DNA of 64,000 nt from Asterochloris sp. CNOR1 (Eukaryota > Chlorophyta > Trebouxiophyceae > Trebouxiales > Trebouxiaceae). This document shows positions 1 to 64,000 of this stretch, piece after piece. The number at the start of each line of letters is the position of its first letter. The stretch's first letter is position 1. Where the stretch lies: contig OZ017761.1 of NCBI GenBank assembly GCA_963969365.1, positions 744,001-808,000 on the forward strand, given 5' to 3'. Below the pieces are notes generated by a model, which ran no database searches, was not told the DNA's origin, and was given only the letters and a program-made list of their open reading frames with translations. Both the position numbers and the translations under genes were made by a program.

Positions 1-937
1 GCATTTTGGTGCTGGTCGCTGGAGGCAGTCACAGCCCATCAGTACGTTCATCTCCTGCAGGGCGACCTTCTGCAGCAGGGTGCGCCTGTCGCAGCATGCA
101 TCAACAGGGCTGCACTGCCCCTGCTGGACCCTTCATGGCTGCAGGGTGGCTTTGTGAGCAGGAGTTGTATGGGCAACCCACAAATGAGCGCTCCCCTACT
201 CCATCCTGCAGGGCCGTGCCTGTGCGCAGCTGGACGTCAGGCAGATGCAATACAGCGTGCTTGCCCTGTGCAGACTGAGCCCTATCAGCAACATGATCTG
301 GCCATGCACTCACTCCCTTGCCTTTCTGCTGCAGGGTGACCTCCGTCAGCAATATGATGTATGTCAAGGAGGACCTGGTGCTACCCCACAACATCAGCTT
401 TTATGACCTCATTCTGACAAAGGCGAGGGGAAAGACGGGGCCCCTTTTCAACTTTGATGTGCACGAGGAGCTGCGGGCCAATGCTGATACCAGGGTTGAG
501 TCAGATGATTCACACGCTGGTGCGTTGCGTGCACAGGACCCCTGCCGATGCTGGTATGCAGCAGTCCCGTGAGCTGACGTCTATAGCATGTTGTCAACAG
601 TGTTAAAGAGTTACATGCTGGATTCTGCGCAGCTCTCTCAGGACCAGTGCAGCAGTCAAGACAAGCCTGACCAAGCCTCTGACAGCTTGCACCTGAGGCC
701 TGCTAATGCTGTTTGTATGAGGGCAGTTGCCTGAGGCCAGCCAGGCTCTGTGCTATGAGGTTCACCTGCGTGTTTTGGGTTTGCATTCCAACGAACTGTC
801 CGCTTGTGCCTGCCCCAAATGAGTATTCCGCACATGTATTCCCCTCTGCAGGCAAGGTTGTGGACCGGCACTGGTATGACCGCAACAAGCACATCTTCCC
901 TGCTAATCGCTGGGAGGTTTATGATGCTGATGCATGA
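1..937 (+). CDS. XCT: XAP5/FAM50 family nuclear protein (XCT), 3' part
   Basis: This is the C-terminal part of a XAP5 (FAM50A; plant XAP5 CIRCADIAN TIMEKEEPER) protein, a nuclear factor linked to splicing, small-RNA and clock functions in plants. Two exons are secure: 335-519, with [31 protein letters not shown] and SDDSHAG, and 852-937, with [20 protein letters not shown]. They join in phase at SHAG|K, exactly as in the family, and end at TGA 935-937. Further upstream, an exon ending near 239 (RACAQLDVR) fits the family's FLRAVQQQL...REIR stretch but would need a GC donor, so that join is uncertain. The N-terminal coiled-coil half lies outside the window. Identity is sure; the upstream exon structure is not. 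Confidence 0.93.
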
Positions 938-1403
938 CAGCGCGCTCGAGCTCTTGATCAGTACGCATGTGTCAGTCATACATGCTGAACTCTTGAACAG
1001 CCGTTGGTCCCACACTTGTGCTGTCTGCCGTGAGTCATGCTTCATTCATGTTTGTCAATCATCATCAAAGAGCAAAGTCAAAAGTGGTGGGGCCCAGCTC
1101 TAGCCTAGAACGGTGGGCTGCAATGCTTTGGGCTTTGGCTGGCACCTGGTGCTTGTGGCCAGGCAAGTGTTTGCTTGCCATGCTGATGGGCTGTTTCAGC
1201 AAGTCATGCCACAATGCTTTGCCACCAGCAACTTCTGTGGGGCTGGCTGCTGAGCGGGATGGTCTCCTGTACATGCTCATGACGGCCTGCAGGGACCTGC
1301 CCACACTGTGCTCCTTCTTGACCTGCAAACACCATGTGTGAGGCATGGACTGAAAGAGACATGCATCAGTGCAAGAGAGGCTGATGCTTGCAGATGATCA
1401 CGT
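938..1403. other. XAP5 3' untranslated and tail-to-tail spacer
   Basis: No coding exon is supported here. The stretch lies between the XAP5 stop and its probable TGTAA signal, and then meets the 3' end of the converging minus-strand gene. Open frames in it lack family similarity and look like chance. Confidence 0.5.
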
Positions 1404-1408
1404 TGTAA
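1404..1408 (+). terminator. TGTAA polyadenylation signal (XAP5)
   Basis: TGTAA is the green-algal poly(A) signal. This is the first convincing plus-strand copy after the XAP5 stop, although the 3' UTR would be long (about 470 nt). Confidence 0.5.
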
Positions 1409-1471
1409 ATTGGTGAAGCACACACTCTTTGGCACCAGTAGGGCTGCTGCTGCCTGCCTTAAATGCAGTCT

Positions 1472-1476
1472 TTACA
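1472..1476 (-). terminator. TGTAA polyadenylation signal of the minus-strand repeat gene
   Basis: The minus strand reads TGTAA about 140 nt beyond the stop at 1613. Together with the plus-strand signal at 1404 it brackets a tail-to-tail junction of under 100 bp. Confidence 0.5.
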
Positions 1477-1612
1477 GCAAGGGGTGCAACGCCTCATCAC
1501 ACAGCAAAGCTGTTGTGATTTGTGAGAGCTGTACAACTTCTGCTGCCCACCTGAGAGGCGGTTTGAGCAGCGCACAGAGGCATTTGCATGCAATCCAACA
1601 GGGTTCCAGAGC

Positions 1613-4600: not shown

Positions 4601-7600
4601 CAGGCTGGCATGCTGCCGTGCCAATCTGGCGATGCACTGCCTGTGGCGCAGGGCTCCCTTCGCTGCCCCATGCTGCATTGAACGGGAGGCAGCATGCACG
4701 TCCAGCTTCAGCCAGGGGCTTCACAGAACCCACTCGGCCAGTTATTGCAGCCTGTCTGTGAGCTGGCAGATGGCAGTGATAGCTGAGGCCTGACCTTGCT
4801 TGTGCTGCAGCACTGCACGTACGCAGCACAGCACAGATGACGCTTCCCAGTTGCCCAAGAAGGCAGCACAGCATAGCAGAAGCTTCTCACCCTGCACAGG
4901 GGGCAGCCGGTAAATTGCCAGAACCAGCAAGAAGCCCTTGTAAGAACCCTTGCCCAGCATTTGACCATACAAGCCACAGCAGTGGTTTCCCCTCTTGTTG
5001 CCAGCGCCTGATGGCGCTTGCCACGAAGCATTACTTCCTCGCCCAACTGCTCTCAGAGTGCAGAGCATGGGCAATCAGACTGCGTGTGATGAAGCTGAGC
5101 ACAGCTGACAGTCCTTTCCAGGGAAGCACAGCTGCGACCACACAGCAGCCTAACACTCGATGCCCCTGATGTGCACGGCAAACCTGGATGGCAAACAGTA
5201 TCTGCTGGTAGGTTCCTGCATGGCTGCATTCTTGCGCAGCACATGGCCCTTGCTGCCCTCTTTGCACCTTGCAGGCATAATCTGCTGTCTGTTTTAGTCT
5301 AAAGCACCTGATGCTCCTTTCCAGGGAGGCAGCTGCAGCCCGCGCAGCCACTCGCCGCTCGCTGCCCTCAATGTGCTGCGGAGGCAGGTTGCCTGACAGG
5401 CTGACTGCGTGCAGCCCCGAGGTGTCCGCGATGTCGTGGGGCGCCTCTGCAATGCTCATCTGGCGCTCTGGGCGGCCTGCACATGTCGGACGGCAATGGC
5501 TGTCATACGGGAGTGCCACAAGATGATGAGAAATATTGAATGATGTCAGATGACTGCACTATGGCAAACGGGAATGTGAGACTCAGGTGCGATCAGCCCT
5601 CACGGTGCAGCTGGATCAAAACTCAAGGCACCCTGGGTAGGGACAGACACCTCCACCAACCAGCAGCACATGCCCCAGCACAAAGGTGCCTGGCAGCTTG
5701 CAGACAATAGCAGTAGGGAACTGCACGCTGAAAGGGATGACAAGACCCTCAGCAGCACATACAGGCTTGCTCAGCTGGCAGGCAGGTGCAGCAGCCCTCT
5801 GCAACAGATGGAGCTTACCCAGCACTTTGGACAGCTGGCGGACAGGAGCAGCATGGGCTTCCTGGTGCGGCGGCACCACAACAGAGGAGGTGACATGGAA
5901 GCCATGCGGCGACATACTCCTGCTGCGGGAGGCCTTGTGGCGGCGAATGATGGACCCTGTGGGGTGTTCCTGACTGTCCATCAACGTCCGGGACCCTGTA
6001 GAGGGTGTCAGGACAGATTCAGGCAACAGAACAGATGGGCGCAGTGGGTTGTGGCTGGCTGTCCACAAATGTCTTGGGGCCTGCAGAGGGTGTTGGCCTA
6101 AGGCTGGGCAGCACAGAATAAGGGTGAATGCGGTGTGTTTGTGACTGGGGCCTGAAGAGAGGATCGGCAGCAGGGTCGGCAGTGGTAGCGGGGCGGGGTG
6201 CAGCTAATTGTCAGAGGGCTATGTGCCTGTAAGGAGTGTGTGCAGCAGGCTTGGCATCAGCACTGTAGCTTGTGCTGGCTTGCAAATGGCTGGGAGCCTG
6301 TAGCAGCAGGCTGGGCAGCAGATGGCAGGCCTGCAGCTGGAACTGTACCCTAGGGTCATTGACATTGCTGCCTGAGGGCAGAGGTTCAAAGACCCAATTT
6401 GGGGCGAGTCCAGCCAGGAGAAACACTGCAGGCACTGCAGGGTGGCATTGTCTTAGGACCTGGCAGGTGCTGCGTGAGGCAGGCACGCACTGGCATCCGC
6501 ACTTGGCTTCTGCCAACCTGTTGCTGCAACATATGTGTACAGACCCACCTTGGGGCAAGTCCAGCCCATATCGCCAGGGGACAGACTGCAGGCGCTGCAG
6601 ATCCTCCTCATTGGCCGTCTTCAACAACTGCAGCACCATCACAACAATCAGGCTTACAGTGGTGCCTTTGAGAGTCAGCTGCAGGAGACTGGCCTGCACG
6701 CCATGCTCACTGAACAGCAGCTACATGAGATACATGCATGGCAGCAGCATTGGCCCACTCAGACTGCCAGCTGGCTGCTGTGCTGCGTCACATCTCCACC
6801 TGCCAAATACTGGCTTGCAGGCAGGGCTGACAGGTGGCAGAGCTGGCTGGTGGCAGCATTGCTGCCTGGTAAAGCTGACAGGCGGCAGCATTGCTGCAAG
6901 ACATTCCCACCAGGCAAGATGAGGTTGACAGACAGCCGTGCTCCACCTGGACTGCCAAGGGTGGCTGTCCTGCAAGACATCCCCATACAGCTAGGCACCC
7001 TCAGGTCGGAGGGCAGCAGCCGCGATGGCCCACCTGGACTGCCAGGTGACGGCTGTGCAGGTCAATCTCGGGCGCGAACGTTAGTTCCTTGGAATTGCCT
7101 GCCTTGGCGGCCCTCTGTGCCTCCAGCTTGGCCTCCTTGCAGCGGTGCCTGCAGTGATGCCACAGACCTTCAGTCCTTCACAGAACCTTACACATCATTC
7201 CTTCTGCGCCTGCAGCTTCCCTTCCTTGCAGAGCTGCCTTCTTCTTTGTGAATGCAGGCAGTCTGTCACTATGGCAGCTGCGCCTCTCGCCATTTGAGCA
7301 GGTCTTCCTAGTTACGGGGCGGGACCCTGCATTGGAAGGTGTTGACTATTCAAGTCACATTATATGCAAACAACGTCGCTGTTGTTGATTGTCTGCACTC
7401 CTCACCATCTGAGCAGGTCCTCACGGCTGCGGTGCAGGCCCTGCGACTTGCGTAGCAGGACTGGCCGCCCAGTGAACTCTTGCCAGGCCTCCTCATCCCG
7501 TGGCAGGCTGGACGCCTCCAGCTGCCGCCTTTTGGCCAGCAGAGCCTGCAGTCCAACAGCCGCCATGCTCAGCAGCAGGCACAGGATGAAACCTCACGGC

Positions 7601-10149
7601 AAACCCCCCTTCCGTGCCTGAGAGATGCTCGCAGCAGGCTGGAGGCGTCCAGCTGCTGCCTCTGCCAGCAGAGCCCACAAGCCAGAAGGTCCTGCGGCCA
7701 TCAGGCCCCGCTTTCAAGTTGCTTGGCCCAAGCATTCTGTGCAGCAGGTAGGATGCCCTTGGTCACTGCCTCTGTGTCAGGAAGGCGTGAAGATGATTGA
7801 GCAGGGGCTGATCATTTGAGGGCCTGTGTTAGTGCATCGCTGTACAGCTAGGAGGTCCTGCCGTAGTGGCACCAACTGCAGAAGAGTGCCTTTGCAACAC
7901 ATGGCTCAGACGCACTCTCCCTGCAGATGTGGCATTGAGGAAGTGCAGTCAGCAGCCAGGGCATTTGCCGACAGGGCGGCGAGACCACCACTGCCCAGCA
8001 CTGCAAGTCATTTGGTGGCCATTGTGCTACATCACAAAGACGCATGTGAGCAAACCTGCCCCATAGTACGTGCATGTCCTGTACGATTCAGCACAACGGG
8101 CTCAAGAACCGGAAAGCGCCCACCTCCTGCCTCCTGTGGGTGCCATGAGGGCGGCACTGCATGCAGCAACTGCACAACAAAGAGCAGAGATTGTGGATGC
8201 TGTGACGCTCAGGAAGGGTGCTGACCCCAGGGCACAGGCCCATAAGCAAGACTTGAGGACAGCACCACATGGACACTTTGCTCAGAGCAGCCCCAGATGG
8301 GCAGACTACCAGAGCACCACAGTCCAAGGTGGAAGCCTCCATAGCTTGGCCCGACCTGCTACCCCTGGAAGGTTGCTGCAGATCCGGAGACTTTTGTAGA
8401 AGTCTGAGACTACCCGTGAATCCTATCACTCACTACAGATCTTGTACTGACCTCCTGCCTCTGGAAGAAGGTGGAGGCTGTGTCCTCCAAGATGCGCGCT
8501 GATCCCCGCGACAGACCTTCACTGTGCCCCCATTCCGCGAACAGCGCCTCCTTCTGCTCTGCCAGGCGCTGCGTGCGGGCAGCAGCCTCCTCATACAGAC
8601 GCTCTGCCGCTCTGTACACAACAGCAGACTGACTCAGGAGGCCAGGTCATTTGCCAGGCACTGTGTGTGGGTCCTCACAGACACTCAGCAGCACTGCCGC
8701 CCTGCGAGCAGGTCAGTATTCATTGCGCAGGAGCTGGTGCCAAGCACCAGGCAGACTCCCTTGAGATCGCCAGCAGGCCCTTGGATGCCCTGGGAAGATG
8801 GGCCATGGGGACCTGCAGCTTGCACGCTGGGCAGATGCAAACATGTTCACCAGGCTGAGTAAATGCTGCTGCGAAATTGCTGGTTGCATGCAGGTATGTT
8901 TCACTGTTTGGGCTCAACATGCTAGAACTAGCCTCCATAGCTGACTTGAGGTAGCACATGACATGGTTTGCGTGATATGTCTGGGAGGGGTCAGCATTGG
9001 TGCATTTGACCCTGCCCATCTGGCTTGCACTTGAAAGCATCCTGAACTCAAGGAAACTCCTTCCAGGATCCTGAGAGCCAGAGCCAACACCAGCTGTTTA
9101 CTATGCTCACCTTCTAGCCAGCGAGGCCGACCGCTTGGGCGGCTCATGTGATGCCCGCTCTGCCGCTGCAGCAGCTTCCTGCTGCATCCTGGTGCTGTCG
9201 CGGTGCTGCGCCCATACAGAGGCCAGCTGCAGGCAGCCAGGACTGTCTTGCGTGCTGTCTCAGTGCTGCAGCTGTGAGACATTGAGATGCCCCCACTGGT
9301 GGAGGCATAAGGCCAGGCCATGCACATCCACAATGGTATCATTCGAACACATTTGACACAGAAAGCAGCCCATCCTGGCAGCCTGAGCCTGGACTCATGC
9401 TCACCAGGTCGCATGCTTTCTGCTGATGAGCATTGCCACCTTCAGCACATCCTCACAGTTGTGATTGCTGGATTGCTAATGCGGAGGATTATGGCAGCTG
9501 GATCGCAGTCACTTGGAACACAAGAGCTGCCGCTGACCAGCATGCATGCATGACCAAGAGCAGCACGCTTGTATGCAAGGGCTGAAATGCCAGCTGGGCT
9601 GCTGCAGCTTAATCTATCATGCTTCATTTAGTGGCTCCCCTTCAAAGGGAACACCCATACTGGCATAGTCGATGGAGACACACCTGTGCAGAAGCTTGTC
9701 AACTCAGCCTCCCCTTTTTTGCTGAGTGGATGTCACAGGCCATGCTGAGAAGCACCCACCTGATACGTATGCTCTTGTGCAATGGCCCTCCCAGGCCATT
9801 GCAGCTTGGCTTGCAGCGTCTGCTTGAGCTCCTTGTTGAACACAGCCAGTTCAAGGCTGCCCACCTCATACAGAAGCTTCATGTGCAGGCACTCACAAGC
9901 TGTCCTGTTGCAGCTTGCAGCATGTGTGTCTGTCTTCATTGTGTACAGGGCGAACCCAGATCTGCACACCTGATACAGACGCTCATGTGCAGGTGCCCGT
10001 CCGCTGTGTCGCCGCGGCTTCCGTGGAGGCGAGGCTTGCTCCTGCCGGTGCTTGGTGTGCCGGTTGGGCTGGTGGTGGTGCTGGTGGTGGTGGTTGGGGC
10101 GCGACTTGGTTGGGCCTGCAGGCAGGTTTGCAGCAGCGGCCATGCGCAT
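1613..10149 (-). CDS. Large coiled-coil protein with LYxxA / TFxPxI motifs and an Arg-Ser repeat tail
   Basis: I do not recognise a named orthologue. From the 5' side, an exon ending at 9970 (His-rich, ending HERLYQ) is followed by exons 9111-9205, 8452-8611 (ERLYEEAAARTQRLAEQ), 7406-7545, 7034-7148 (ELTFAPEI), 6549-6627, 6349-6371, 5819-6080 and 5308-5476. All of these join in phase. The order 'ERLYxxA..R..R' helix and then 'TFxPxI' is seen in several coiled-coil cytoskeletal or flagellar-type proteins of algae and protists, so a cytoskeletal role is inference only. Later exons are less sure: 4.0-4.1 kb (GRAVYEAARQDTLLQRYD), 3.6-3.85 kb (LRSLKRSLSSVDS), 2.78-2.95 kb, and a last Ser/Arg-rich exon about 1613-2368 with a 21-aa tandem repeat. 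ATG at 10149 or 10143 is a possible start, but the gene may continue upstream into the next minus-strand model. Confidence 0.55.
2054..2242 (-). repeat. Three 63-bp units encoding a 21-aa Arg-Ser repeat
   Basis: On the minus strand three consecutive 21-residue units share the pattern LSRxxSAxxxRRxxAAxVxRx. A decayed fourth copy (RRSLGRSPSAKRL) and a preceding stretch rich in RSPSR follow the same theme. Each unit pairs an Arg-Ser cluster with a short amphipathic AADVVR helix. Confidence 0.8.
3926..3994. repeat. Short minisatellite (TGTGGCTTG-based)
   Basis: Ten- to twelve-base units (TGTGGCTTGC and TGTGGCTTGGGC) repeat about six times. If translated on the minus strand they read as a KPQQATAQATAQ-type low-complexity run. 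Whether the run is in an exon or an intron of the large minus-strand gene is not clear. Confidence 0.8.
7499..7675 (-). repeat. Exon echo: copy of exon 7406-7545 in the upstream intron
   Basis: The exon edge around 7499-7548 (plus-strand text GCAGGCTGGACGCCTCCAGC, then CCAGCAGAGCC) recurs at about 7626-7675 as GCAGGCTGGAGGCGTCCAGC, then CCAGCAGAGCC. The copy lies in the adjacent intron, same orientation, offset about 127 bp. Confidence 0.8.
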
Positions 10150-47662: not shown

Positions 47663-50600
47663 TCAGTCCATCAGCTCAGAGGCTGGGAGGCTGCTCCTGT
47701 CCACCAGGCTCAGCTGCAGCTGGCGCCGGTGCCCAAAGGTCTCCTCAATGCAGATGCGCACGGCTGCCTTGTCGAAGATGGTGAACTGCAGGCGGCCGTC
47801 CTTGCTGGTCACCTGCTGCTTATCCTCGTCGAGCACAAATTCGTCCTCCTCATGCACCTGGCCCCCTGCAGGGCATGCAAAACATTGTTGCTGGGAGTCA
47901 TGCTTCATGGCCAGCAGCAAGCAGAGGCCCAGCAGGGAGGATCTTGGCCGATTGCCTCATGCGTGGCCCCCTGCAGGACCAGCTCAACATCTGCCGAGAA
48001 CGGCTGAACAAATGGTCTTGTCCAGCACAGCCTTGTCTGCATGCACCTGGCCCCCCTGAAGCAGCACAGATCACACATTGAGGCGTGTGCAGACCTGCAG
48101 TGCTTTGCAAGCAGTCTACAAGCCTCAACAGAAGTGCAGCTGGAAACATGCAGCAACACTTTGTTGCTGTTTGCCTACTGCAGTCAGTACACCTCGACCA
48201 CTGCGGCCCTATGTAAAAAGCCCCGTCACATGTGATGCCAGCAGCAGGCACCAGACCCGCCGCTGTAAGCGACGGCGTGACATCCCCTGAGGCTGCAAGC
48301 TGCAGAGGTGCGCGCTGGTGCCAGAAACAGCCTTGCCATTATGCAGGGATCAGCGACTGCACAGCATGACTTTGTGCGCCCACCTGCTGCCTGCCCTGCG
48401 CTGGCTGGCTGGGAGGAGCCTGCATGTGGCTTGCTGGTTGCTTTTTTGTTGGTGGAGGTCAGGTACACTGGGCCTTCGATGCCATACTTGGGCACAAAAA
48501 CAATCAGCCCGTTTGCCCTCACCTGCATACAAACGGGTGGGCACTATCAGGTTGGGGTCTGAGCTGCCTGCAGGCCCATCAAGCGCCAGCTTCACTGTCC
48601 AGGAGCCACCGATTAATGGAGTCAGGGTAAGACACAGGTACACCAATTGGTTTGCTGAACCAGCCAAGTCCCTGCGCTGCCCACAGCAAATCATTTGTGG
48701 GGCATCTGCCACAGTGGTGCGCCCATTTGCAGCTCCCCAGAGACCCTTGCAGCTACGTGACCACTGATGCATGCATCAGGCACAATGGTGTTCCTCGCAC
48801 ACATAAATGTGCAACTCCACAGAAGCCCACATGTTCGCCTGTTGCCAAACCCAGGTACCCAGCAAGGCTCTGCTGCTCATGCCCCATCACCCCGCTTGAC
48901 CCAGCTCATGCTTCACTGTCCTAGCAGCAGTCAAAGGGCTGACTCACCCTGGTGATGCGGGCATCTGCCACCATGGTGCGGCCCTTGAAGAAGATCAGGG
49001 TGTGCAGCTCCACAGAGGCCCTTCCCGCCATTTGGGCATTGCGATGACGTACATTCAGGTTGTCAGCGACTGCCCGCACCCCCGCGCGGTCACGAGCGCT
49101 GTCAGGCAGAGGCTGCAGGCCCAGGCTGGCGGCCAGCAGGCGGTGCACCATCACATCTGAGTACCTGCGGGCAGGGGCCGGGGCAATATTGGCAGGTGGC
49201 AGCAAATGTGGCGAGACATACCAGGGGTTGCAGCCGCGGGCAATTATCCCACCAGCAGCATGGCATGTCAAAACACCTCAGGGCAAGGGCAGCCTTCAGC
49301 AGGAGCCTGGGCAATCTGGACAGCAGGCATTAAAGACAGTGGGGATGCAGCCAGCCCAATGTCCAGACTGCGTGACATTGACAGCTGACAAACATGGCTG
49401 CCTTACCATTGTGCAGGTACCAAGGGGCCGCCAGCAGCCCCTTGACCTGCTGATCTTGAAAGGGCATGTTCTGTCTATGGAGCAACACCTGACATCCTCT
49501 TTGCACCAAACTCACCTGCGAATTGGGGATGTGAAGTGGGTGTAGAGGGGTGCTGCCAGCCCATAGTGTAGGTACTCTGGGGGTGCCAGCTCCCCACTGC
49601 CAACATATACAGCCTGGGTCATGCACCGGGTAGCCATGATGCGCACAAGCTTGTTGAAGTAGGGGTCAGTTGGGCGCACTGCCAGGTCCAGGCTTGCTGC
49701 CAGAGCCTGCACCAGATGGAATCTGGTCACAACCGCATGCACTGCCTGGTCCATTAGGGTCTACAGGTGATCTGGATGCTATCAAAAATGGTGTGCCAGC
49801 ATGTTGTAAAAGGGTCCATTGGGCAAACGCGAGCTCTGGGCTGGCTGACAGAACCTGCAGGTGAGGCTGGACAGATGACCTGGCATGCAGAGCATGTGTT
49901 GGTGCAAGGCCAGCTCAAGTCTGGCAGGTGGTTGAAAGCGGCCATGCAGATTCATTCCCTGCTGGCACATGGCACGAAGCCCTGAAAGAGTAGGCAGCCT
50001 CTGCCATTGCTGCTGCTACATGCAAGGCGCTGCTGTAAGCTCAAAAGGAACAGCCTGCGTCCTGATACTCAGAAGCATCCGGAGCAGCAGGCGTCAGCAG
50101 CAGGAAGCAGATGCAGATGTGCTGCAGACACAACAGGCATGACAGGCAGCTCAAGAAGTGCTCCCTGCCAGGTGAAGCCGTGTTCAGTGCTGACTGCACC
50201 GCTTCTTGTTTCCCACCAAGCCACTTTCATGCTGCCCGCCTTGCTATTGTCAGCTACATCATGAAGCTCGCAGCTGCCGCCTTCAGCAATGGCTCAGACC
50301 ACAAGCAAGCGAACAATGCTGACGACTCCCAAGCCTGCAGGCAAGCCTTGCAGCCTGAACGCATCGCGCTGCTGTCCACTTTGTGCCCCCTCAAATTATA
50401 TGCAGTCCGACCTTGCTGCTGGCAGCTTCAATCTGAAAGCCTGCAGCGGCTGCAGCCTTCAGCAGTGGCTCAAACTGTCGTGGGGCAGGCTCAGGATGGC
50501 GCCGCAGCAAGGCACAAGAGGCAAATGCCTGCAGAATGCGCTCTGCCACAGTGACGTTGGCCAAAAGCATCATCTCCTCCACCATCTGATTGGTCTCCCG

Positions 50601-53600: not shown

Positions 53601-56600
53601 GCAGACCCTCCCACACTAGAGTCTCACTGCCTCTGCTCCACATGTCAAAGAACCCTCTTCTGCTTACAGCCCGGTGATGCGCAGGCCCCCACCTGCCGAG
53701 CCTGCAGCCTGATCATGAACAGTGCTGCTGCACAGGGCAGCACAGTCCCATCTGCCAAGTCTGCCGTTAACAGGTGTGAAGCATGAATCTGCCAGGTGTG
53801 CAGCACTGTCAGGCAGAAGCCCCTCAGATGCCAGCTTCCCAGAAAAGGGTTGAGGACCCCACTGATCCAAAGCACAGGCAGATACACCTGTCTGGTCTGC
53901 AGCCTGATGAGACCAAGATGCTTACCTGCTGAGATGGCAGCCTCATCATGCACAACCCCTCACATGCTTGTGAGTATCAGACGATAGTCCTGCAGCGTGA
54001 CCAAGCCCAAGTACCCACCTGCCTAGTCTGCAGCCTGATCATGGGGTAGCGCCGCTCCACAGGGCAGAACAGCACGCTCTGCGTCTGCATGCCCCCCCGC
54101 CCGTCCCTTGGCGGCTGCAGGGACCCGCAATAGCCATGGGTGCGCCAGTTGCGACGGATGATGCCCACCACCCTGCCGGTGGGGCGGGCCTGGCTGGTGT
54201 TCAGGGCCTCTGCAGGCGTGTCTGGCACCGTCTGCAGGCAGCATGGGGCAGGAAATAGAGAACATGACTCTCAAGCGCCAGCAAGGAGCTTTTCATAGGA
54301 GTCTTTTTATGGGACTGTCTGCCAGCATGCTGCTGAGTCTGGTGCCCCTGCAGGCCAGTCTGGCACTGTCTGCAAAACAGCATGGCAGGGGAGACTTCAC
54401 CCATGAGTCTTTCTGTTCCTCTGGGACTGCGTGCTGGCGGCATTACAGAGATCACAAGCCACTTCCCCTGACATGGATGTAGTGGCATGGTCCGCAAGAC
54501 CCCAACATGCTGAAGAATGGTCCCACTCATTGACTCCAATCAGGGCATGTCATAATAGATTGCAGGTGGGAGGAACCCAATATGCAATGAGTGGACATGC
54601 CTGGTGTGCCTCTGGCAGCCGACCAGGCTGCCACCCACCTGAGCAATGTGCCCGCACTCAGACTCACGGCAGCAGCAAGGTGCTTGAAGCAGCCAGCCTG
54701 GGGATAGCCCGGGGCAGGATGGTAGTCGCTGAAGATGGCCTTAGCAGCCGCCCACCTGCGCAATGTGCCCCCCCTCAGGCTCGTCTGCATCGTCTTCTTC
54801 TGCATCGTCATTGGAAGCAGTGGACTCTGCAGGGGTGGGCAGGTGAGTGCTGGCACCCCGCCAGCTGGCCTCAGGTAGCAGCTCCACTGCCACCACATCC
54901 CCATCAATGGCTCTGCAGGCAGAGCTTCGTTTCAATTAAGCAGTGGCGGCTGCCGACTGTGCAAGCATGAGGGGGCAGTCAGCATGGACACTGAGTACAT
55001 GCAGTGTGTTGGCTGAACAGTGTGCTGGCCCTGTGCACATGACAGCATAGGGAGCCTCCCTCATACGGTTCGGAGGACGCTCGTGGTGTGCAGGGTGAGA
55101 CATACAGGTCTCGCTCCTTGCACCAGACAACTTGATCCTGGCCATGTCAGCTAGCCGTGCTTTGCAGCCACACGCCGCCATCAACAAAGTGGGCTCTGCT
55201 GCAGGCCTTGGTGAACATGAAGGGCTGCTGCAGTTGCAAGATCAAGGCAACTTGATCCATGTAGCTCTTGGACATTGCAGGACTGACCTGTTCATGTCAA
55301 TGCGCCCGCTGATCAAGATGTCCTGCCCCACAGACTCAGAGCTGACCCAGCCCTCAAAGGGGTTGAACCTGCTGACCCTCAGGGCGCCCTGCAAAGGCGG
55401 GAGGTCGCACCTCAGCACTTGGCACATCTGCTGCATGTTGCATCAGGAAGGCGCCAGATGTCTAGCCACAGAAGGCCGTCAAGGCATGTGCCCAGCGTCA
55501 GGGCATTTGAGAGAGCGCAGTTGGGGAGCCAGGCAAAGGTTTCAGAGGAGTCCCTTGCAGAAGCAGACGGGGCTGTTCAGTGCCTCTGAGCTTTCTGCTG
55601 CTAGGCATGAGGCACTGCACCTGATGGAAGGTGCCTGACTTGATGCCAGCCGTGATCTCTGTCTGCGTCTTGTGGTCATCATACAAGCGTTTGCGCTTCC
55701 CTGGCCGGCCGCCTGCAGGCCCCAGGCATCGTTCACACCTCTGCAGGATCCCAGGAGGCTTGCATGAGGACGCAGCCCATGTAGACAACAGCCGCCTGCT
55801 TGGGGTGCCAGAAGCTAAATTCATAGTCAACTGCTAGCCAGCTGCAGGGATTGCTGATGCCTGGTGGTTTTTACTTCACGGTCGCCGACCATTTCACATC
55901 TGCCAATCGTGCAATTCGGTAAGATTGATCATGCAAGAAGATGCGAGGTCACTTGGGTTGAAGAAGACTCCAGCAGCAGACATGCCAGCCAATACCCCGC
56001 GCCACCACTTGCGTGCCCCTCTCTTGCAGCAACAAAAGGTTTACATAGCGCCGGCCAACAAGGTCCATGAGCTCAGCACATCCCTGGTTCTGCTGGGCAA
56101 GGGCAGAATTGGCCTTTTTCTTCCACCATGCGCACTGCCGTCAGCAATCAAGGTGGACAGGCCTTGGCCAGCGGACAGGCCAGCCACACAGGCCTTAGCA
56201 AGGCATCAGCTTGCCTTTGAAGTTCCTGTCCTGCTGAGTCGCAGCCCCTTCCAACCCCTGCATGGCTGTAGGGGCGTCGTCAAAGTTGCTGCCTGCCGCC
56301 TGAGCCACCAGATCCACCAACTCAGGGGTGTCAAGGCGGCTTTTGGCATAGGCCTGCACCCACAGCAGCCGAAAAGCTCAGATCCAGCACAGACTGATAT
56401 TCTCCCTGCAGCCTAGAAAAGTGCAGCTCTGTGCTTATGGCTGGCTCCACAGCAGCAGCCAGTGAGGCAGCAGGCACCAGCGCCTGATGCTAAGCAAGGT
56501 GCTGCTGAGCCAAGTTGTGTGTGACTCATAGCATTGGCAAGCACCCACAGCATAATCTCCCCAGTACAGATGGCAGCTCCAGAAACATCGTGACGAGCAG

Positions 56601-58473
56601 GAGGCAGCTGTGCTGAAATTAGCAGGGCTGCCGCCCTGTCAGGTCAGGCAGCCTCCTGCCACAGATGTACCCTGGACAATGTGCCACCGTGCTCGATACA
56701 CTGCCACGGTCCATGCATACGCAAGCAGTAAGATGGTTCCCAAACTAGCACCAACAAATTGCTGATTCGGTCCAAGACAAGGCTACTGCAATGGCCAGCA
56801 GCTCTTCAAAGGGCCCTGTACAGTGTGAAGCTCACCTGCACGCTCATGGCCGTCAGCCCCTGCTGCTGTGCCTTCAGGCGGTTGGCTACATCGTTGGTGA
56901 GCAGCAGGATCTGCATCTGTGGCAGGCGCTGCTTGTACCAGGCGGTGGCCACCCTGATGGCCCTGTCATTGCGGTCGTTAGGGGACTCGCCAGCCTCTGC
57001 CTTGATGAAGGTCTCCCTGCAGCACATGCACCTCTGTTATACAGTCAGAGAGTGAGCTTCCACTGCTCATCTGGCGTACACAAAGCATGGCACCCACCAC
57101 CTGGTGACTTTGGGATTTACTGGTGTTTCAGGCATAGCCCAGAGCCTTCTGCTAGTGACGTGTGGTCAGCTACACAAGCCCGCAGCCTCATGCTCGAGGG
57201 CCCCGTCCCAGCCCTGCAAACCTTCAGGGGCCGCATGTATCAAGAAATGCCACTCCTGTGAAGCGCACAGCGCGCTGTGCTTGTGAAGCCTCACATAGCA
57301 TCAAGCATCGCTCTACACGCTGCTCAGACAGGGCCCAGAGCCGTCACAAGCAGTCCTAATGGCAAAGACCATTAAAGATGCAGCCCTCTTTTGGAGCCTT
57401 GCAGCGGTGCATAGCTCGAGCCACTACCCAGCACATTCTTCAAGTACTGCCCACCAGGGGACACTGCTCCTCACATGCGTGTAGAGTGCACCTGGACCCA
57501 ACAAGCTGTGCACAGCTGACTCCTGACTATCCCCCAGCATCCCCACCGGTGGTGCTCATTAGCAAACACAAAGAAGCGCCGCTCCTCTGAGGCACACAGC
57601 GCGCGTAGGCGCTGGTAGATGCTCTGGTTCCGGTGCTTAACCTCCTCCAGCACCACGCTCATGATGATCACATCCTTCACCATAGGGTGCTCCAGGAAGT
57701 CCATCTGCAGTGGGACTAAAGACCTGGGTGAAACAATTGCCTGCTGGGACAAAGTCTGAGCATGCAAAGCAGAGTGCTCCAAGTGTTCCATCTACAGCAT
57801 TCATACAGTGGTCATGGTCACCACTTGCAGAGAGACTGCGATGCATCTCCCTTTGAGAGACACAGAAGGCTTAGGGTATTGACCCGGGGGAAAGGGGGTG
57901 CCCGTCGAGCATGCACGGCAGGTTACTTCAAGGTTGCTCTAAGAAGTGCATTAGCAGTCAGCACCTGCAAGTGTGGCACACCTGCCATCCTGCAGCATCT
58001 GAAGGAATGCTGTGCATGGAGCCCTGCCGTTCTCACAGACACAAATTGCAGCTTGCCTGTGACAGCACCACATTGGTGTCGACTGCCAGGTAGTGCTGTG
58101 CATCAGGGGCAAGCTTGGCGGCTGCAGGGTCGCACTCTGGGTCTAATGGAGAGCCGCTCCAGATGTCGTCCCGCAGATAGTGCTCTCTCACCACCTGGGC
58201 ATGTGCATACACAGCAGCAGTGATCAAGGGCAGCATGAGCCAGACTTCACAAGCAGACCTGCCCTGCGTGAGGGCCGCGACATAGCAGCCCGGTGGCAGG
58301 AAAGATTGACTTGGAATGCGCAAACAGGAAAGCTGCCGGGCAGGGATGTTGCCAAAACGGTGCCAGCATCATGGGGCACCTGGCCATGGAGTGGGATTGG
58401 GACAAAGGCTGTCTCTCACCTTTAGCACCTTGCCTTTCTTGGTTTTTTTCACAAAAGACTTGCTTTGCAGCAT
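47663..58473 (-). CDS. RRP44: Exosome catalytic subunit DIS3/RRP44 (RNase II family)
   Basis: Twenty exons join in phase into 980 aa: 58420-58473, 58057-58194, 57547-57704, 56836-57016, 56215-56353, 55621-55712, 55288-55388, 54756-54912, 54019-54231, 53236-53361, 52860-52972, 52158-52334, 51399-51548, 51145-51297, 50832-50916, 50412-50603, 49516-49706, 48948-49164, 48420-48522, 47663-47865. The start [18 protein letters not shown] is typical. The PIN endonuclease acids are in place ([25 protein letters not shown]). Cold-shock domains follow ([29 protein letters not shown]). The RNB centre [16 protein letters not shown] keeps all four Asp. [35 protein letters not shown] and a final S1 domain ([12 protein letters not shown]) complete it. 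It degrades and processes RNA 3'-5' with the nuclear exosome. The CR3 cysteines are absent and three introns use GC donors. Confidence 0.97.
48699..49025 (-). repeat. Exon echo of DIS3 exon 48948-49164
   Basis: Plus-strand GGCATCTGCCACAGTGGTGC (about 48700) mirrors exon text GGCATCTGCCACCATGGTGC (48959). GTGCAACTCCACAGAAGCCC (about 48808) mirrors GTGCAGCTCCACAGAGGCCC. Both copies lie in the downstream intron. Confidence 0.8.
50267..50477 (-). repeat. Exon echo of DIS3 exon 50412-50603
   Basis: Plus-strand GCAGCTGCCGCCTTCAGCAATGGCTCAGAC (50267-50301) mirrors exon GCGGCTGCAGCCTTCAGCAGTGGCTCAAAC (50441-50477). The offset is about 175 bp, same orientation. Confidence 0.78.
52031..52200 (-). repeat. 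Exon echo of DIS3 exon 52158-52334
   Basis: Plus-strand TTCTCAGAGGCTGTCCAAACCATAGCAGTGCCAGG (about 52040) mirrors the exon edge TTTCAGAGGCCTCCTGGTCCATGGCAGTGTCAGG (52159). The copy begins in the intron about 120 bp from the splice site. Confidence 0.72.
53688..54085 (-). repeat. Three copies of the 3' edge of DIS3 exon 54019-54231
   Basis: The exon edge with donor (plus-strand CCCACCTGCCTAGTCTGCAGCCTGATCATG at 54014) recurs at 53688 (CCCACCTGCCGAGCCTGCAGCCTGATCATG) and at 53884 (ACACCTGTCTGGTCTGCAGCCTGATGA). The 53688 copy stays similar for about 69 bp. Translated on the minus strand they read [18 protein letters not shown] and LIRLQTRQV. Confidence 0.9.
54205..54390 (-). repeat. Exon echo of the 5' edge of DIS3 exon 54019-54231
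   Basis: Plus-strand CTGCAGGCGTGTCTGGCACCGTCTGCAGGCAGCATGG (54210) is mirrored by CTGCAGGCCAGTCTGGCACTGTCTGCAAAACAGCATGG (54350). The acceptor region is included. Confidence 0.85.
54636..54790 (-). repeat. Exon echo of DIS3 exon 54756-54912
   Basis: Plus-strand CCCACCTGAGCAATGTGCCC (54635) mirrors the exon edge and donor CCCACCTGCGCAATGTGCCC (54751), and CTCAGACTC then matches CTCAGGCTC. The offset is about 116 bp. Confidence 0.88.
57242..57615 (-). repeat. Exon echo of DIS3 exon 57547-57704
   Basis: Plus-strand AAGAAATGCCACTCCTGTGAAGCGCACAGCGCGC (57242) mirrors exon AAGAAGCGCCGCTCCTCTGAGGCACACAGCGCGC (57571). It is about 80% identical and 329 bp away. Confidence 0.88.
57686..57805 (-). repeat. 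Exon echo across the acceptor of DIS3 exon 57547-57704
   Basis: Plus-strand GTGCTCCAGGAAGTCCATCTGCAG (57687) mirrors GTGCTCCAAGTGTTCCATCTACAG (57773), 85-86 bp further into the intron. Confidence 0.8.
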
Positions 58474-58695: not shown

Positions 58696-61600
58696 ATGGA
58701 AGCGCCAACTCAGCCTTTGCAGGTCGAAGAGTATGGCGTTCCTGCCGGGGCTGAGGCCGGCCTGGAGCCCCCAGCCAACCACCTGGAGCTGGCACAGCAG
58801 ATGGCCCTTGCTGCGCAGGGTGGGAATGCTCTGCTCTGTGGCATGCTGGCTCCAGCTTCTTTTGTGATCAGGACTGTGCAGTGCAAGACATGAGCTGTGG
58901 CCTGTATCTGAAGATTGCTTACTTCTCTGTAGATGCCGCAGCCACACTTCAGGCGTATCCCCCTGGTGCAGAGGCAGCAGGCTTGCATCCGCCAATGCCG
59001 TGCCCTGCAGAGGATGGCATCGGTGTGGAGCCACACGCAAAACGTGCCAAGCTGTCTGGTGAGCAGCTTGTGTGTCAGAGTCACAGCGACTTCCGCAGAC
59101 AGGCTGCTGCAGTCTTGCCTGTGTTAATGCTCTGCCACCCAGTGCCACTGGTGCTGTTTGCATCACTGCCAATCTGCTTGGCACGTTCCAAGATCTGCCT
59201 TGAGCTCTGCCACCTCTGCATCAAGCAACAAGAGTGCTCCAACCTGCACCTGGCACTGCTCCTGTGGCATTTTTCAGCCTGACAGCCTGGAACCTCTACA
59301 ACATGCTGTGTTTGCTGCCAGGCAGTGCCTCGTGTGAGCCGGCACACTCAGCATGCTCCCTGTCACCTCAGGCCCTGCAATGCAGGCTTTGCGTCCAAGC
59401 AGCGTCACACCTCCACCCACCGCGGTGTGAGCTGGCACACCCAGACCCAGCGCTGGAAAGCACAGATCAAGGTCAACGGGAAGGACGTCAACCTGGGCAG
59501 ACACAAGGAGGAGGAGCTGGCTGCCAGGGCCTACGACAGGTGAGCTCAGACAGTAGCAGTGGAGCTGTGCTGCCCAACGCACATCTAGCTCAAGTCTGAG
59601 TGAGCAAGGAGGCTGCTAGGGCCTGCACACAAGTCAGCAAGAAAAGACAGACACGCACAGCAGAAGATTCACGTTCTGTGCCCTCTAAATTCACATCTCT
59701 CAGATGGTGGGATGCCAGATCTAGATACTTGCTTGAAGGCAGCGTCAGGGCCTATCCATGGCAGCTTTGCATTGGATGAGGAGGCAGCTGCCTTGCGGTC
59801 TGCAGATGCTGCATCTGGCAGGCACTGTATGGTGTGCCAGCAGCTCAAGCGCTTAGCATCCAGACAGGCAGCATCTTGTGATATCGCTTTACAGCTTGCT
59901 CTGAAGGGTGAGGGAGGGGGGTGAATGAGGCTGGCTGACACAAGTTCTGCAGCTTTGCATTGTCTGTCTGCAGGACAGCACTGTTGTTTCCCAGGCAGCG
60001 TGCTGCTTTCTGCCATGCAGCAGCACCTAGCCAATCTGAGTGCTGTCTTTGGTGCAGGGCGGCACTGTGCGCCCGCGGGGTGACTGAAGCCAAACTGAAC
60101 TACCCCCTGGAGGATTACCAGAATGAGCTGGAGCAGCTGCAGTCCACCCTGCTGGAGGATCTGGCTGCACAGCTGAGGTGAGGTTCTTGAGGCAAAGGTG
60201 CAGCTTGATATGGTTGACCAATGCCAGCACTAGCCCACTGCTTAAAGCATCAGCTGCGCATGGCCAGCTGACATGTGCGGCTTGTTCAAGCAGTAGGCTG
60301 CAGTGTCAGGAGTGCACCCACATCCCAAGCTGCCAGCTGGACACACTTTGTGCAGTAGCGTCTGCAGCACAAAGCTCTTGGCAATGCCCTTGCCTGCCCA
60401 GCACTGGGTACACCACCCTTGCCTTGTTCTGCCTGCATCGTCCTGGCTGCAGGATGGTGCAGCTATATATGCAACACCTTACCCCTTGTCATGTCTGCTT
60501 AGCCTGAGCTCAGCTGAGTCTGAGAACCCTGTGCTGTCCAGTTCACAGTGGTGCGTGGTCTCACCATGCCTACCTGCCAGCAGTGTGGGGCAACCATGCA
60601 CGCAGCACCCTTTCTCATCCACCCCAGTCTGATCGTTGTTGCTTGGCGGCAGGAGCAACACAGGCCTTCGCCAGCATGCTGCAACAAATGACGCTTAATC
60701 CTTCTGCCTGGCAGGGGTGTGGAGCAGCGCATGCAGGCCCAGACCAGCCGGTACCACGGCGTGCGCCAGAATAAGCGCACCAAGAAGTGGGAGGCCTACA
60801 TACGGGTCCTGGCCAAGCATGTGCACCTGGGCTGCCACGACTGCGAGATTGCGGCTGCTCAGGTGGGGAGCGTTTCTACATCTGCAATCACTTAGGGCTG
60901 AATATAGCATGCCAGGCTGCTGCAGCTCCCCAGGAGAGTGGCTGCACAGGTGGGAGGTGCTCTGCATGTGCGCTGCCAGCTGGAGGGGGCCGCTTGGCAG
61001 GTGACCTTAGGCCGGTGCAGTTGTAGCTGTGTGGCCGCATAGGCGGCAGGCAGCCCTGCATCTGCAGTATCAGCTGGTTGCAGGTCGCTGGGCAGGTCCA
61101 CCTGCTCCTGGCTGCCACAGAGCAGCTGCACAGGTGAGACAGGGCATGTTCTGTCATGGGCTGGGCCCCAGATGTCATGGCCTTGAGCAAGGTCGAACTC
61201 AAGGGGCGGTCTCTCCAATGGGAAAGCACAAGCACCTGGGGCTGCCGCGACTGCAAGATCGTGGCCATCCAGATGACTCTCAGGGCTATATCTGCGCTGC
61301 CTCTTTGATTGGGGAGGTACGCCTGGGCTGCCGCAACTGCTGCATCGCCACTGGAAGTGTAGATTGGCAACTAGCCCACTAGCAGGCAAGTTGCTGCCGC
61401 TATGCCCAGCATGCTGCCGAGCTGGGCCATGCCTCCTCAGGAGAGGTCAAAACTCGCACAGGCATCCTGGGCTGCCAATGCCTGAGCTGACAGTTGGGCG
61501 ACACTGTGAGGCAGCTTGCACCGTTGCGTTGGGCCAGTACTGCAAGGCCTGACTTGCTCAAGCTGCCTTGGATTTCTGGCCAAAAGAATCTGCGTGATCT

Positions 61601-62826: not shown

Positions 62827-62853
62827 ATGAGCTGTGCTTAAATCAGAAACCAT

Positions 62854-62858
62854 TTACA
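62854..62858 (-). terminator. TGTAA polyadenylation signal (PDHA), antisense to the AP2 3' UTR
   Basis: The minus strand reads TGTAAATGG about 160 nt past the PDHA stop. Confidence 0.5.
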
Positions 62859-63008
62859 AAGACAAAGCTGGAGTTGCAGAAGCATGTGAGTCCCAGAGTT
62901 GAAGGTGTCAAGTGTCAGCATGTTTCAAATCAAATCAGTAAATGGCACGGCTGCAGCAATTTGCAACTCGAATGCTGGCAATCATCAGCTTCAAGGGTGT
63001 CGTGAAAT

Positions 63009-63013
63009 GTAAG
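63009..63013 (+). terminator. TGTAA polyadenylation signal (AP2)
   Basis: AAATGTAAGCC lies 183 nt past the AP2 stop and four bases short of the PDHA stop codon on the other strand. Confidence 0.55.
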
Positions 63014-63016
63014 CCA

Positions 63017-64000
63017 CTATGGGGGCAAGGGGATTTTAGGCTTGTCGCTGGTGAGAGGGCGCAGCTTGGCGCTGAGGCCTGCCTTGTAGATGTTGTTCCA
63101 CAGGTCTGCAGGCACAACATGCTGGCTCAGGTCACAGGCAAAAGAGAAAGGTTGGCATGTCTCCATGAACCAAAAACACCAGGAGCTTACCCTCAATGGG
63201 AGGCTCAGGTGACTTCTTCGCTTCCTCAACTTCTGCATCCACCTGCAGACGGCATGGAGGGATGCATCAGGCAGGCTGTGCATCAGGGCCTCACTTTCCT
63301 GCCTGGGCAGCGTGGCGGCAACCTGGAGCCAAGCTTGATGTCCCTGCACAGCACACCACAGCACTTGTACCCATGCATAGCAGCCTGACGCACTGTACCG
63401 ATCAGAGCAGTCTCATTCGCTCTCAGGACTGGTCATGCCAGCCAGTCACCCTCAGGATGGTGCACCGGGCTCGAGAGAGAGCCCAAGCCAACTGCCCACA
63501 TTGTGACCCAGATATTGCACCTGCCAGGGCGGCAGCCCACAGCCGCCAGGTGGTTTTGGGGCTTGTGTCAGTAGTGTAGGAATGTGCAGCAGTTGCCATG
63601 TGTCTGATGGGCAGGCCGACAGGTAGACAGGCATCCACCTGTAGCTTGTGCCAAATGCTGCTCATCACTAGATCTGCTTGGCTGACTGTCCAGAGGGCAG
63701 GCTCACCTCTTTCCTGATCTCCTTTTCCAACTTTTTCAACTCAGTGCCCTCAACAAAGTTGTTCTCTGTGATGAGGTCCTTGATGTGCTCAATAGGGTCC
63801 CTTGCACGCCGGATGCCAGAAATCTCATCCCTGGTTCGATAGCTGGAGCCAGGGTCTGCAGACAGGCCACAGGTTAGAATTGACTCTGGAAGGCAGCCAA
63901 AGGTCAGCAGGCACTTTGGTGGCGGGTCGTGAGCTCAGCAAGTGAAGAGGCAGGGCCTGCTGCCACCATGCACAACCTTGCAGCTGAGATACAAGCTGCT
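63017..64000 (-). CDS. PDHA: Pyruvate dehydrogenase E1 component subunit alpha, C-terminal part
   Basis: Three exons (63707-63855, 63191-63242, 63017-63105) join in phase and give the C-terminal 96 or so residues of mitochondrial-type PDH E1 alpha. Visible are DPGSSYRTRDEISGIRRARD, PIEHIKDLI, ELKKLEKEIRKEVDAEVEEA, KKSPEPPIEDLWNNIYKAGL and the end KPKIPLPP. YRTRDEI is the C-terminal phosphorylation-loop region of E1 alpha. The enzyme decarboxylates pyruvate with thiamine diphosphate as part of the complex making acetyl-CoA. The rest of the gene lies beyond the right edge; 63856-64000 is intron. An acceptor at 63105 rather than 63121 is required by phase. Confidence 0.93.

What the first reader, a model, noticed from the sequence alone, without database searches (positions are those of the whole stretch)
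1..64000. Introns carry degenerate copies of the adjoining exon edges ('exon echoes')
In at least five unrelated genes, introns hold same-orientation, 70-90% similar copies of the neighbouring exon border, usually including the splice site. Offsets run from 76 to 330 bp. Examples: 28794/28888, 30088/30378, 32255/32331, 33064/33159, 7626/7499, 13417/13500, 53688 and 53884/54014, 54350/54210, 54635/54751, 57242/57571, 57773/57687 and 61233/60824. This is too frequent and too tied to splice sites for chance. It fits introns being created or enlarged by local tandem duplication spanning an exon border, one copy staying coding and the other decaying. The duplication model of intron gain is an existing hypothesis; a genome showing it in most introns would be unusual. 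Both ages are seen, from 86% identical and ungapped to barely recognisable.
Basis: partly seen in the sequence, partly recalled or inferred. Interest (0 to 1): 0.9.

Follow-up and report, generated by a model that had tools for sequence, protein, structure and literature searches.

The report
Introns lengthened by copying exon edges
In this probable green alga, many of the longer introns contain decayed copies of the edge of the exon next to them, which suggests that introns there grow when short stretches spanning a splice site are duplicated side by side.

Summary

In the window, direct repeats 60-400 bp apart number 42, inverted ones 0; one 10-kb sample from each of 18 large contigs gives 111 against 3. 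In 36 introns of four conserved genes (DIS3, MPP-alpha, SAL1, MTR4) mapped by homology, 15 hold a decayed copy of one of their own borders, against 0.2-0.4% per border for other introns. Of 17 introns of 450 bp or more, 13 carry an echo; of 9 under 300 bp, none. In 343 ab initio introns, not chosen for echoes, 68 carry one, rising from 2% (65-130 bp) to 44-56% (450 bp and over).

Echoes decay as noncoding DNA (33 of 52 broken). Subtracting the duplicated lengths brings echo introns from 426 to 259 bp, near the 229 bp of the rest. So introns are enlarged by local tandem duplication across a border. Classical AGGT intron creation is not supported as the rule: in-register similarity equals background, with one exact and three near-register candidates among 339. 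Echoes take less exon than simulated uniform duplication predicts; unexplained.

The parts
49002..58236 (-). DIS3/RRP44 exoribonuclease gene (part seen here); 12 of its introns mapped to the base by homology; the best test bed for the echoes
   Evidence: Pfam RNB, OB_Dis3, PIN_4 above cut-off and Rrp44_CSD1 just below it; residue-level phmmer alignment of its exons to human DIS3; exons 1-3 and 5-15 spliced in a script read through in frame
53362..54018 (-). DIS3 intron 6 (657 bp), with decayed copies of the end of its upstream exon plus 5' splice site at 53679-53764 and about 53885-53908; real copy 54005-54088
   Evidence: SW 37 vs max 11 for the 11 other DIS3 introns; alignment; second copy; in a search of the own genome its only other match is its own exon edge, E 3.4e-8, 78%
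54232..54755 (-). DIS3 intron 5 (524 bp) with an echo of both borders: 5' border real 54744-54782, echo 54627-54665; 3' border real 54193-54246, echo 54329-54385
   Evidence: SW 27 and 27, both rank 1 of 12; alignments
49707..50411 (-). DIS3 intron 13 (705 bp) with echoes of both borders: 5' real 50400-50475, echo 50229-50299; 3' real 49648-49711, echo 49798-49859
   Evidence: SW 30 and 26, rank 1, alignments; no other match of the intron found in the own genome
51549..52157 (-). DIS3 intron 9 (609 bp), echoes of 5' (52038-52075) and 3' (51704-51724) borders
   Evidence: SW 16 and 19, rank 1
52335..52859 (-). DIS3 intron 8 (525 bp), echo of the 3' border at 52462-52494 (real 52315-52346)
   Evidence: SW 21, rank 1
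57017..57546 (-). DIS3 intron 2 (530 bp), echo at 57242-57275 of exon sequence 57571-57604 (24-58 nt from the splice site, site not included)
   Evidence: SW 22, rank 1
57705..58056 (-).
   Evidence: SW 16, rank 1
28792..28982 (+). Complete head-to-tail duplication of 94 bp (86.6% over 97 bp) holding a predicted exon end, 5' splice site and intron start
   Evidence: no other place found in the own genome; splice site ab initio only
30086..30419 (+). Duplicated stretch with CTGCAG|G, copies 30086-30129 and 30376-30419, 86%; both copies are called exons by the finder
   Evidence: ab initio gene 25876-35217 +
32256..32394 (+). 3' border echo, offset 76 (copies 32256-32318, 32332-32394), ab initio border
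33066..33232 (+). 3' border echo, offset 95, 82% over 72 bp (copies 33066-33137, 33161-33232), ab initio border
60810..61353 (+). Gene read by eye as AP2: exon end 60810-60855 echoed at 61219-61265 and, weakly, 61317-61353, in what that reading makes the following intron
   Evidence: no domain search was made here and splice sites are ab initio or by inspection
7503..7684 (-). Pair 7503-7555 / 7634-7684, 81%; 3' border echo in an ab initio model of a low-complexity gene

Best explanation
In this genome, introns are lengthened by local head-to-tail duplications, mostly of units of about 60-300 bp, many of which span an exon-intron border. After such a duplication both copies carry the border. 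The copy that keeps the protein unchanged stays in use, which is the upstream one at a 5' splice site and the downstream one at a 3' splice site. The other copy becomes intron sequence and decays freely. SHOWN: local direct repeats, their link to homology-mapped borders, their placement on the intron side, the rise of echo frequency with intron length, length excess matching the duplicated length, and noncoding decay of the echo. INFERRED: the mutational step (tandem duplication, not some other short-range copying), the use of one copy only, and that selection on the protein fixes which copy survives. This is growth of existing introns. Creation of new introns by the same means is not shown.
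For: Direct 42 / inverted 0 at 60-400 bp in the window and 111 / 3 in 18 samples. Border against own intron in 36 homology-mapped introns: 15 of 36 with an echo, cross-intron rate 0.24% (5') and 0.40% (3') per border. By length: 0 of 9 (<300 bp), 2 of 10 (300-450), 13 of 17 (>=450), Mann-Whitney p 6.7e-5. Ab initio set, not selected for echoes: 68 of 343, 2% to 56% across length classes, length-matched control at most 2.4%. 5' echoes lie downstream (11.4% vs 3.3%) and 3' echoes upstream (13.1% vs 3.0%). Echo introns 426 bp, minus offsets 259, others 229. Remainder of the unit still similar in register (score >=10 in 36% vs 11%, n=72). 18 rows of near-complete tandem copies, some from the same array and some in exons. 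Mismatch by codon position .220/.197/.288; 32 of 52 echoes frameshifted, 8 with stops, 12.4 expected if neutral. Of three echo-bearing stretches searched in the own genome, two match only themselves and one also its own exon edge (the tool warns that such counts are lower bounds).
Against: Exonic parts of echoes are short (median 36, 90th percentile 61 nt, exons >=100, n=69) whereas simulated uniform duplication gives medians of 55-66 and 90th percentiles of 98-99. Constant-rate uniform simulations predict at least as many intron-interior repeats as border echoes, while borders exceed interiors about threefold; of the uniform versions tried only the one with duplications older than 0.28 substitutions per site came near (.253 vs .097), and it gives too many echoes overall (.31 vs .20). 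Alignments cover a median of 0.45 of the offset, so for many echoes tandem origin is inferred. Intergenic DNA has little direct repetition (1.1% of 12.8 kb; 1.9% of 53 points, no more than control), which general tandem duplication would not predict, though the sample is small. Third codon positions differ more than first and second, which also fits weak constraint on some echoes. No transcripts and no relatives were available.
Confidence: 0.8

Rival explanations
1. Rogers-type intron creation: tandem duplication of an exon piece with AGGT makes a new intron whose length equals the offset.
For: Several pairs have CAG|GT at the same place in both copies. Twelve of 339 introns show 5'/3' border similarity (score >=14; 3.5% vs 0.35% control); L010 2157-2338 is exactly in register and three more (in L005 and twice in the window) are within 12 nt of it, which a misplaced splice call could explain.
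Against: In-register identity equals background (6.59 vs 6.63; 6.33 vs 6.67 of 26; 339 introns). Introns under 200 bp have almost no echoes (3 of 108). Eight of the twelve are far out of register.
Confidence: 0.06
2. Echoes are real alternative or duplicated exons, both copies coding.
For: The ab initio finder itself called several echoes as small exons; third codon positions differ more than the others.
Against: 33 of 52 are broken by frameshift or stop. DIS3, MPP-alpha and MTR4 relatives lack the extra peptides. Third-position excess is about 1.4-fold, close to what is expected when one copy alone is constrained.
Confidence: 0.06
3. Duplication is directed to borders (by splicing, transcription or chromatin), not uniform along the gene.
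For: Repeat coverage peaks at the border in introns >=300 bp (.15-.18 vs .06-.12 over most of the rest, with a second rise of .11-.16 near 90 bp). Exonic part capped near 60-70 nt, shorter than simulated; border-spanning echoes take 12-70 nt in DIS3 and 1-58 nt in the other mapped genes. Border to interior ratio about 3.
Against: A burst of uniform duplications older than about 0.28 substitutions per neutral site gives a ratio of about 2.6 because intron-intron pairs decay from both sides. Constant-rate simulations with interior duplications cut to 20% or 10% do not reach the observed ratio (.197 vs .175 and .239 vs .168), so border bias alone does not explain it. Selection against long exonic inclusions could cap the exonic part.
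Confidence: 0.25
4. Introner-like mobile elements or a dispersed intronic repeat family.
For: Repeats sit in introns of unrelated genes.
Against: Almost no excess of direct over inverted similarity beyond 600 bp in the window. Three echo-bearing stretches show no other copy in the own genome except, for one, its exon edge. Echoes resemble their own border, not other introns.
Confidence: 0.02
5. Chance similarity from shared splice motifs (CTGCAG, CAGGTG) and biased composition.
For: The motifs are strong here and give a background score of about 9-11.
Against: The cross-intron control holds the same motifs and reaches score 16 in 0.24-0.40% of borders; the antisense control reaches score 18 in 0.8% of 5' and 1.6% of 3' sites against 13.9% and 15.0%.
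Confidence: 0.01

Closest known systems
[quoted passage not shown] ATP2A1, Hellsten 2011; review PMC3443670)
   Same: Local tandem duplication within a gene, protein left unchanged, splice signals supplied by the duplicated stretch (passages seen in PMC4974935 and PMC3443670; the original papers were not read).
   Different: Here the duplications enlarge existing introns; the in-register AGGT signature is at background.
Potato RdRp case (Ma, Lan and Niu 2016, PMC4974935)
   Same: The duplicated stretch spans the end of an intron and the start of the next exon, as in the 3' border echoes here; a figure legend also mentions an 83 bp duplication inside an intron (passages seen).
   Different: One recent event that made a new intron and exon; here many events of various ages, with the extra copy decaying as intron.
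Long introns of Chlamydomonas and relatives (PMC8226300)
   Same: Intron-rich, GC-rich green algae with median intron lengths of 198-343 bp (222 bp predicted here). [quoted passage not shown]
   Different: Those passages report no border echoes; whether those genomes hold them was not tested here.
Introner elements (recalled)
   Same: Genome-wide source of intron sequence in algae.
   Different: Dispersed families; here copies match their own neighbouring exon.

Membership tests
Rogers-type tandem-duplication intron gain | 5' and 3' splice-site neighbourhoods similar in register, offset equal to intron length | tested here: not met
   339 introns, mean identity at background; one in-register and three near-register cases among 12 with any border-to-border similarity
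Rogers-type tandem-duplication intron gain | Intron absent from relatives lacking the duplication | not testable with these tools
   No relatives of this genome held
Tandem duplication across an exon-intron border | Same-orientation adjacent copies that include exon edge and splice site | tested here: met
   62 of 76 border echoes span the junction; one exact 94-bp tandem at 28792-28982; unit remainder test positive
Tandem duplication across an exon-intron border | Extra copy adds its length to the intron | tested here: met
   426 minus offsets 259, others 229 bp; length dependence
Alternative or mutually exclusive exons | Second copy keeps an open, constrained frame | tested here: not met
   33 of 52 broken; 19 of 52 not broken over the aligned part
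Alternative or mutually exclusive exons | Transcripts containing the second copy | not testable with these tools
   no RNA data
Introner elements | Many similar copies at unrelated loci | tested here: not met
   No long-range excess in the window; 3 stretches searched in the own genome, none dispersed (lower bounds)
Introner elements | Target-site duplications or terminal repeats | not tested
   no family found to test

The most novel reading that the evidence does not exclude
A duplication process aimed at exon-intron borders, taking at most about 70 nt of exon, is the main source of intron length in this alga, so that each long intron is largely a layered record of its own splice sites.
Probability: 0.22. 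Interest if true: 0.8.

Novelty: new variant of a known kind. Interest (0 to 1): 0.62.

Why it matters
The Chlamydomonas comparison leaves open what makes the introns of such compact algal genomes long (PMC8226300, passages seen). Here the source of the extra length can be read from the sequence: many long introns carry decayed copies of their own borders. That makes intron growth measurable event by event. It gives natural experiments on how the spliceosome chooses between two near-identical sites. It also warns annotators, because an ab initio finder reads some echoes as small exons.

Tried and rejected
An unseeded ab initio gene finder collapsed into 21-nt exons. Seeding it with DIS3 splice sites and codons mended this: 12 of 12 DIS3 acceptors, 11 of 12 donors, 8 of 12 introns exact; DIS3 was the training material, so this is not an independent score. 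Pfam on the three + frames of 26-35 kb found nothing. Rfam found nothing in window and L019.

Constant-rate uniform duplication did not fit; an old-burst version comes nearer but gives too many echoes; versions with interior duplication suppressed did not fit either; none of the four versions tested matches the short exonic parts. I first thought that CAG|GT at equal register in both copies meant Rogers-type creation; the in-register test spoke against that. I first thought 60810/61219 was AP2-domain paralogy; reading the AP2 frame makes the second copy look intronic. Paper searches listed no title that reports border echoes across a genome; I opened passages of four papers only, and papers such as Gao and Lynch 2009 were not read, so absence from print is not claimed.

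Dropped rows and biases: of 563 predicted introns only those with both flanking exons >=30 nt and enough body were tested (343, 339 in the register test). The 36 mapped introns leave out DIS3 introns 3 and 4 and several MTR4 and MPP/SAL1 junctions. Among the 36, three borders are less secure: MTR4 13-15 (donor not fixed by the alignment) and SAL1 18-19 and 19-20, which lie beyond the one SAL1 stretch whose range I saw; SAL1 19-20 is one of the 15 with an echo. The donor of MPP-alpha 3-4 was moved by me by 21 nt, and finder exons absent from the relatives were merged into introns. I printed five candidate proteins and searched two; L012 and L017 had 4 and 3 echo introns in the list, so 15 of 36 is biased upward and 68 of 343 is the less biased figure. 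Echoes called as exons by the finder bias 68 of 343 downward. Three DIS3 edges were off by 3 bases and corrected.
Full report
SETTING. The window is bases 744001-808000 of a 2.25 Mb contig (C16) of a 56.4 Mb, 21-contig genome, about 58% GC. A gene that I read by eye as two-domain AP2, best matches of MPP-alpha to chains that I recall as plant entries, and a SAL1 phosphatase match suggest a green alga; that is inference. One 10-kb stretch from each of the 18 largest contigs was taken as a sample, one more from C9 later, and one from the small contig C19 that was not used in the tests.

THE OBSERVATION. The 13 pairs that I took from the finding all align in the same orientation. A blastn self-comparison shows 42 direct repeats of score >=20 at offsets 60-400 bp, none inverted at those distances, and neither kind at 600-1000 bp. 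The samples give 111 direct and 3 inverted; 15 of 18 samples hold at least one pair of score >=22 at an offset under 600. This is short-range, one-orientation duplication across the genome.

PROVEN BORDERS. The gene on the minus strand at 49.0-58.2 kb is DIS3/RRP44. Its exons align one by one to human DIS3. GT or GC and AG sites at the edges give 12 introns to the base (three edges corrected), and exons 1-3 and 5-15 read through in frame as DIS3. Each border was compared with its own intron and with the other 11. Own-intron scores rank first for the 5' border in introns 2, 5, 6, 9, 13, 14 and for the 3' border in introns 1, 5, 8, 9, 13. The introns of 101, 228, 228 and 263 bp have none.

With MPP-alpha, SAL1 and MTR4, whose models were checked against solved relatives (SAL1 was seen only as a table row covering residues 454-659 of the query), 36 introns are available. 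Fifteen carry an echo of score >=16: 10 of 36 at the 5' border and 8 of 36 at the 3' border. The rate between different introns is 0.24% and 0.40%. By length the counts are 0 of 4 (<200), 0 of 5 (200-300), 2 of 10 (300-450) and 13 of 17 (>=450); echo introns are longer, p 6.7e-5. The choice of these genes was not free of bias, since loci with several echoes were preferred, and three of the 36 borders are less secure (see Tried and rejected).

WIDER SET. A gene finder seeded with DIS3 learned acceptor CTGCAG|G and donor CAG|GTGAG and predicted 563 introns (its third iteration) in 254 kb. Of 343 tested, 68 carry a border echo: 1.9% at 65-130 bp, 3.6% at 130-200, 14% at 200-300, 28% at 300-450, 44% at 450-700, 56% above; length-matched controls reach at most 2.4%. 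Among points along genes, 13.9% of 5' sites (n=368) and 15.0% of 3' sites (n=367) have an echo of score >=18 within 450 bp. The figures are 10.2% for intron interiors (n=246), 8.5% for exon interiors (n=117) and 1.9% for 53 intergenic points, the last no more than its control. Echoes lie on the intron side: downstream of 5' sites 11.4% against 3.3%, upstream of 3' sites 13.1% against 3.0%. By bases, direct repeats cover 8.8% of predicted exon, 7.7% of intron and 1.1% of 12.8 kb intergenic; part of the exon figure comes from echoes called as exons and from coding repeats.

WHAT THE COPIES ARE. Of 76 echoes, 62 span the splice junction. Offsets run from 47 to 420 bp, 49 of 76 between 70 and 150. 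The unaligned rest of each presumed unit is still similar in register more often than control (score >=10 in 36% against 11% of 72), as expected for tandem units whose intron part decayed on both sides. Eighteen rows of near-complete tandem copies exist, 61-96% identical, some from one array and some in exons. Between exon and echo the mismatch rate is 22.0, 19.7 and 28.8% at codon positions 1, 2, 3, as when one copy is coding and the other free, though weak constraint on some echoes is not excluded. Of 52 echoes with at least 30 exon columns, 32 have frame-shifting gaps, 8 have stops (12.4 expected under neutrality) and 33 are broken. Echo copies keep GT in 13 of 22 and AG in 30 of 40 cases; at 77% identity about 60% is expected for two bases, so GT shows no sign of use or avoidance and AG is kept slightly more often. 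Echo introns have median 426 bp, 259 after subtracting their offsets; others 229. In a search of the own genome, intron 6 of DIS3 matches only itself and its own exon edge; two other stretches match only themselves; the tool calls such counts lower bounds.

CREATION OR GROWTH. Rogers' model needs 5' and 3' neighbourhoods alike in register. Over 339 introns the identity is 6.59 against 6.63 and 6.33 against 6.67 of 26. With gaps allowed, 12 of 339 introns show similarity between their two borders (score >=14, 3.5% against 0.35%); one (L010 2157-2338) is in register and three more (one in L005, two in the window) lie within 12 nt of it. So these duplications are mainly additions to introns that already existed, as far as this test can see; a few creations are possible and very old ones would be invisible.

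UNIFORM OR BORDER-CENTRED. Coverage by repeats peaks at the border of introns >=300 bp (.15-.18), dips at +30 to +50 of the 5' side (.06-.07) and rises again near 90 bp (.11 on the 5' side.16 on the 3' side). Searched within the own intron, 5' borders reach .142, 3' borders .164 and interiors .052 at score >=18. Simulations of uniform, steady tandem duplication give interiors as high as borders or higher. If duplications are older than about 0.28 neutral substitutions per site, borders exceed interiors 2.6-fold, because intron-intron pairs decay from both sides, but that version has echoes in 31% of introns against 20% observed; other bursts tried gave lower ratios or fewer echoes. Suppressing interior duplication to 20% or 10% at a constant rate gave ratios of only 1.1 and 1.4, so border bias alone does not account for the profile. 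On the other side, simulated echoes take a median of 55-66 nt of exon with 90th percentile 98-99, against 36 and 61 observed for exons of at least 100 nt (69 echoes on 462 sides). In the homology-mapped introns the border-spanning echoes take 12-70 nt of exon in DIS3 (exons of 150-213 nt, 150 being a stand-in where the exon end was not mapped) and 1-58 nt in the other genes. Long echoes may be called exons by the finder, but that cannot affect the hand-mapped DIS3 set. Selection against copies that look too much like exons, or a process centred on borders, could explain the cap; I cannot decide.

LITERATURE. Passages of PMC4974935 and PMC3443670 describe tandem duplication as a source of new introns; passages of PMC8226300 call the advantage of long introns in Chlamydomonas relatives unknown and leave the mechanism open; passages of PMC12636532 give intron lengths in Auxenochlorella and other green algae. 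Other papers were seen in listings only.

VERDICT. A real, genome-wide and strong pattern. The best reading is growth of introns by local tandem duplication across their borders. Single cases of border duplication are known; a genome in which it supplies much of the length of long introns is a new variant of that kind, and the border-centred option is open.

Noticed in passing
window 49002-58236: Acceptor sites are unusually uniform (TGCAG in 11 of 12 mapped DIS3 introns, the other CCGCAG) and DIS3 intron 1 has a GC donor (GCAAGC).
   Followed up: partly
L017 and L012: Ab initio models turn echoes into extra small exons (MTR4: ELLFQEQLIK followed by VVKLLLQQQLVK; MPP-alpha: TMLLE followed by ATMLLEV), a likely source of false exons in annotations of this genome.
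   Followed up: yes
window 9877-9969 (-): Short predicted intron (93 bp) whose two borders match within 11 nt of register (CTGTATCAG|GTGTG vs CTGTATGAGGTGGG), inside an array of three similar copies at 9755-10020; a possible Rogers-type creation if the acceptor call is shifted.
   Followed up: partly
window 11205-13190: Repeated DNA encoding an LDLLFS-like motif in a long, low-complexity predicted minus-strand gene (1065-20165), probably several genes fused by the finder.
   Followed up: no
window 2049-2249: About three copies of a 63-bp (21-codon) repeat in a predicted exon.
   Followed up: no
window 3924-3995: Minisatellite, 10-bp unit GCTTGCTGTG, about 7 copies.
   Followed up: no
L013 2644-7579: Predicted 1235-aa model with a gag-like start, looks like a retrotransposon (impression only, no search made).
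   Followed up: no
L009 1658-1850: Three successive copies ending in CTGACCCYAAGCAG|GTG, each with a possible splice donor, the third more diverged; could be a nested border duplication.
   Followed up: partly
intergenic stretches of window and samples: Inverted repeats cover 3.3% of the 12.8 kb called intergenic but only 0.25-0.41% of introns and exons, the reverse of direct repeats.
   Followed up: no
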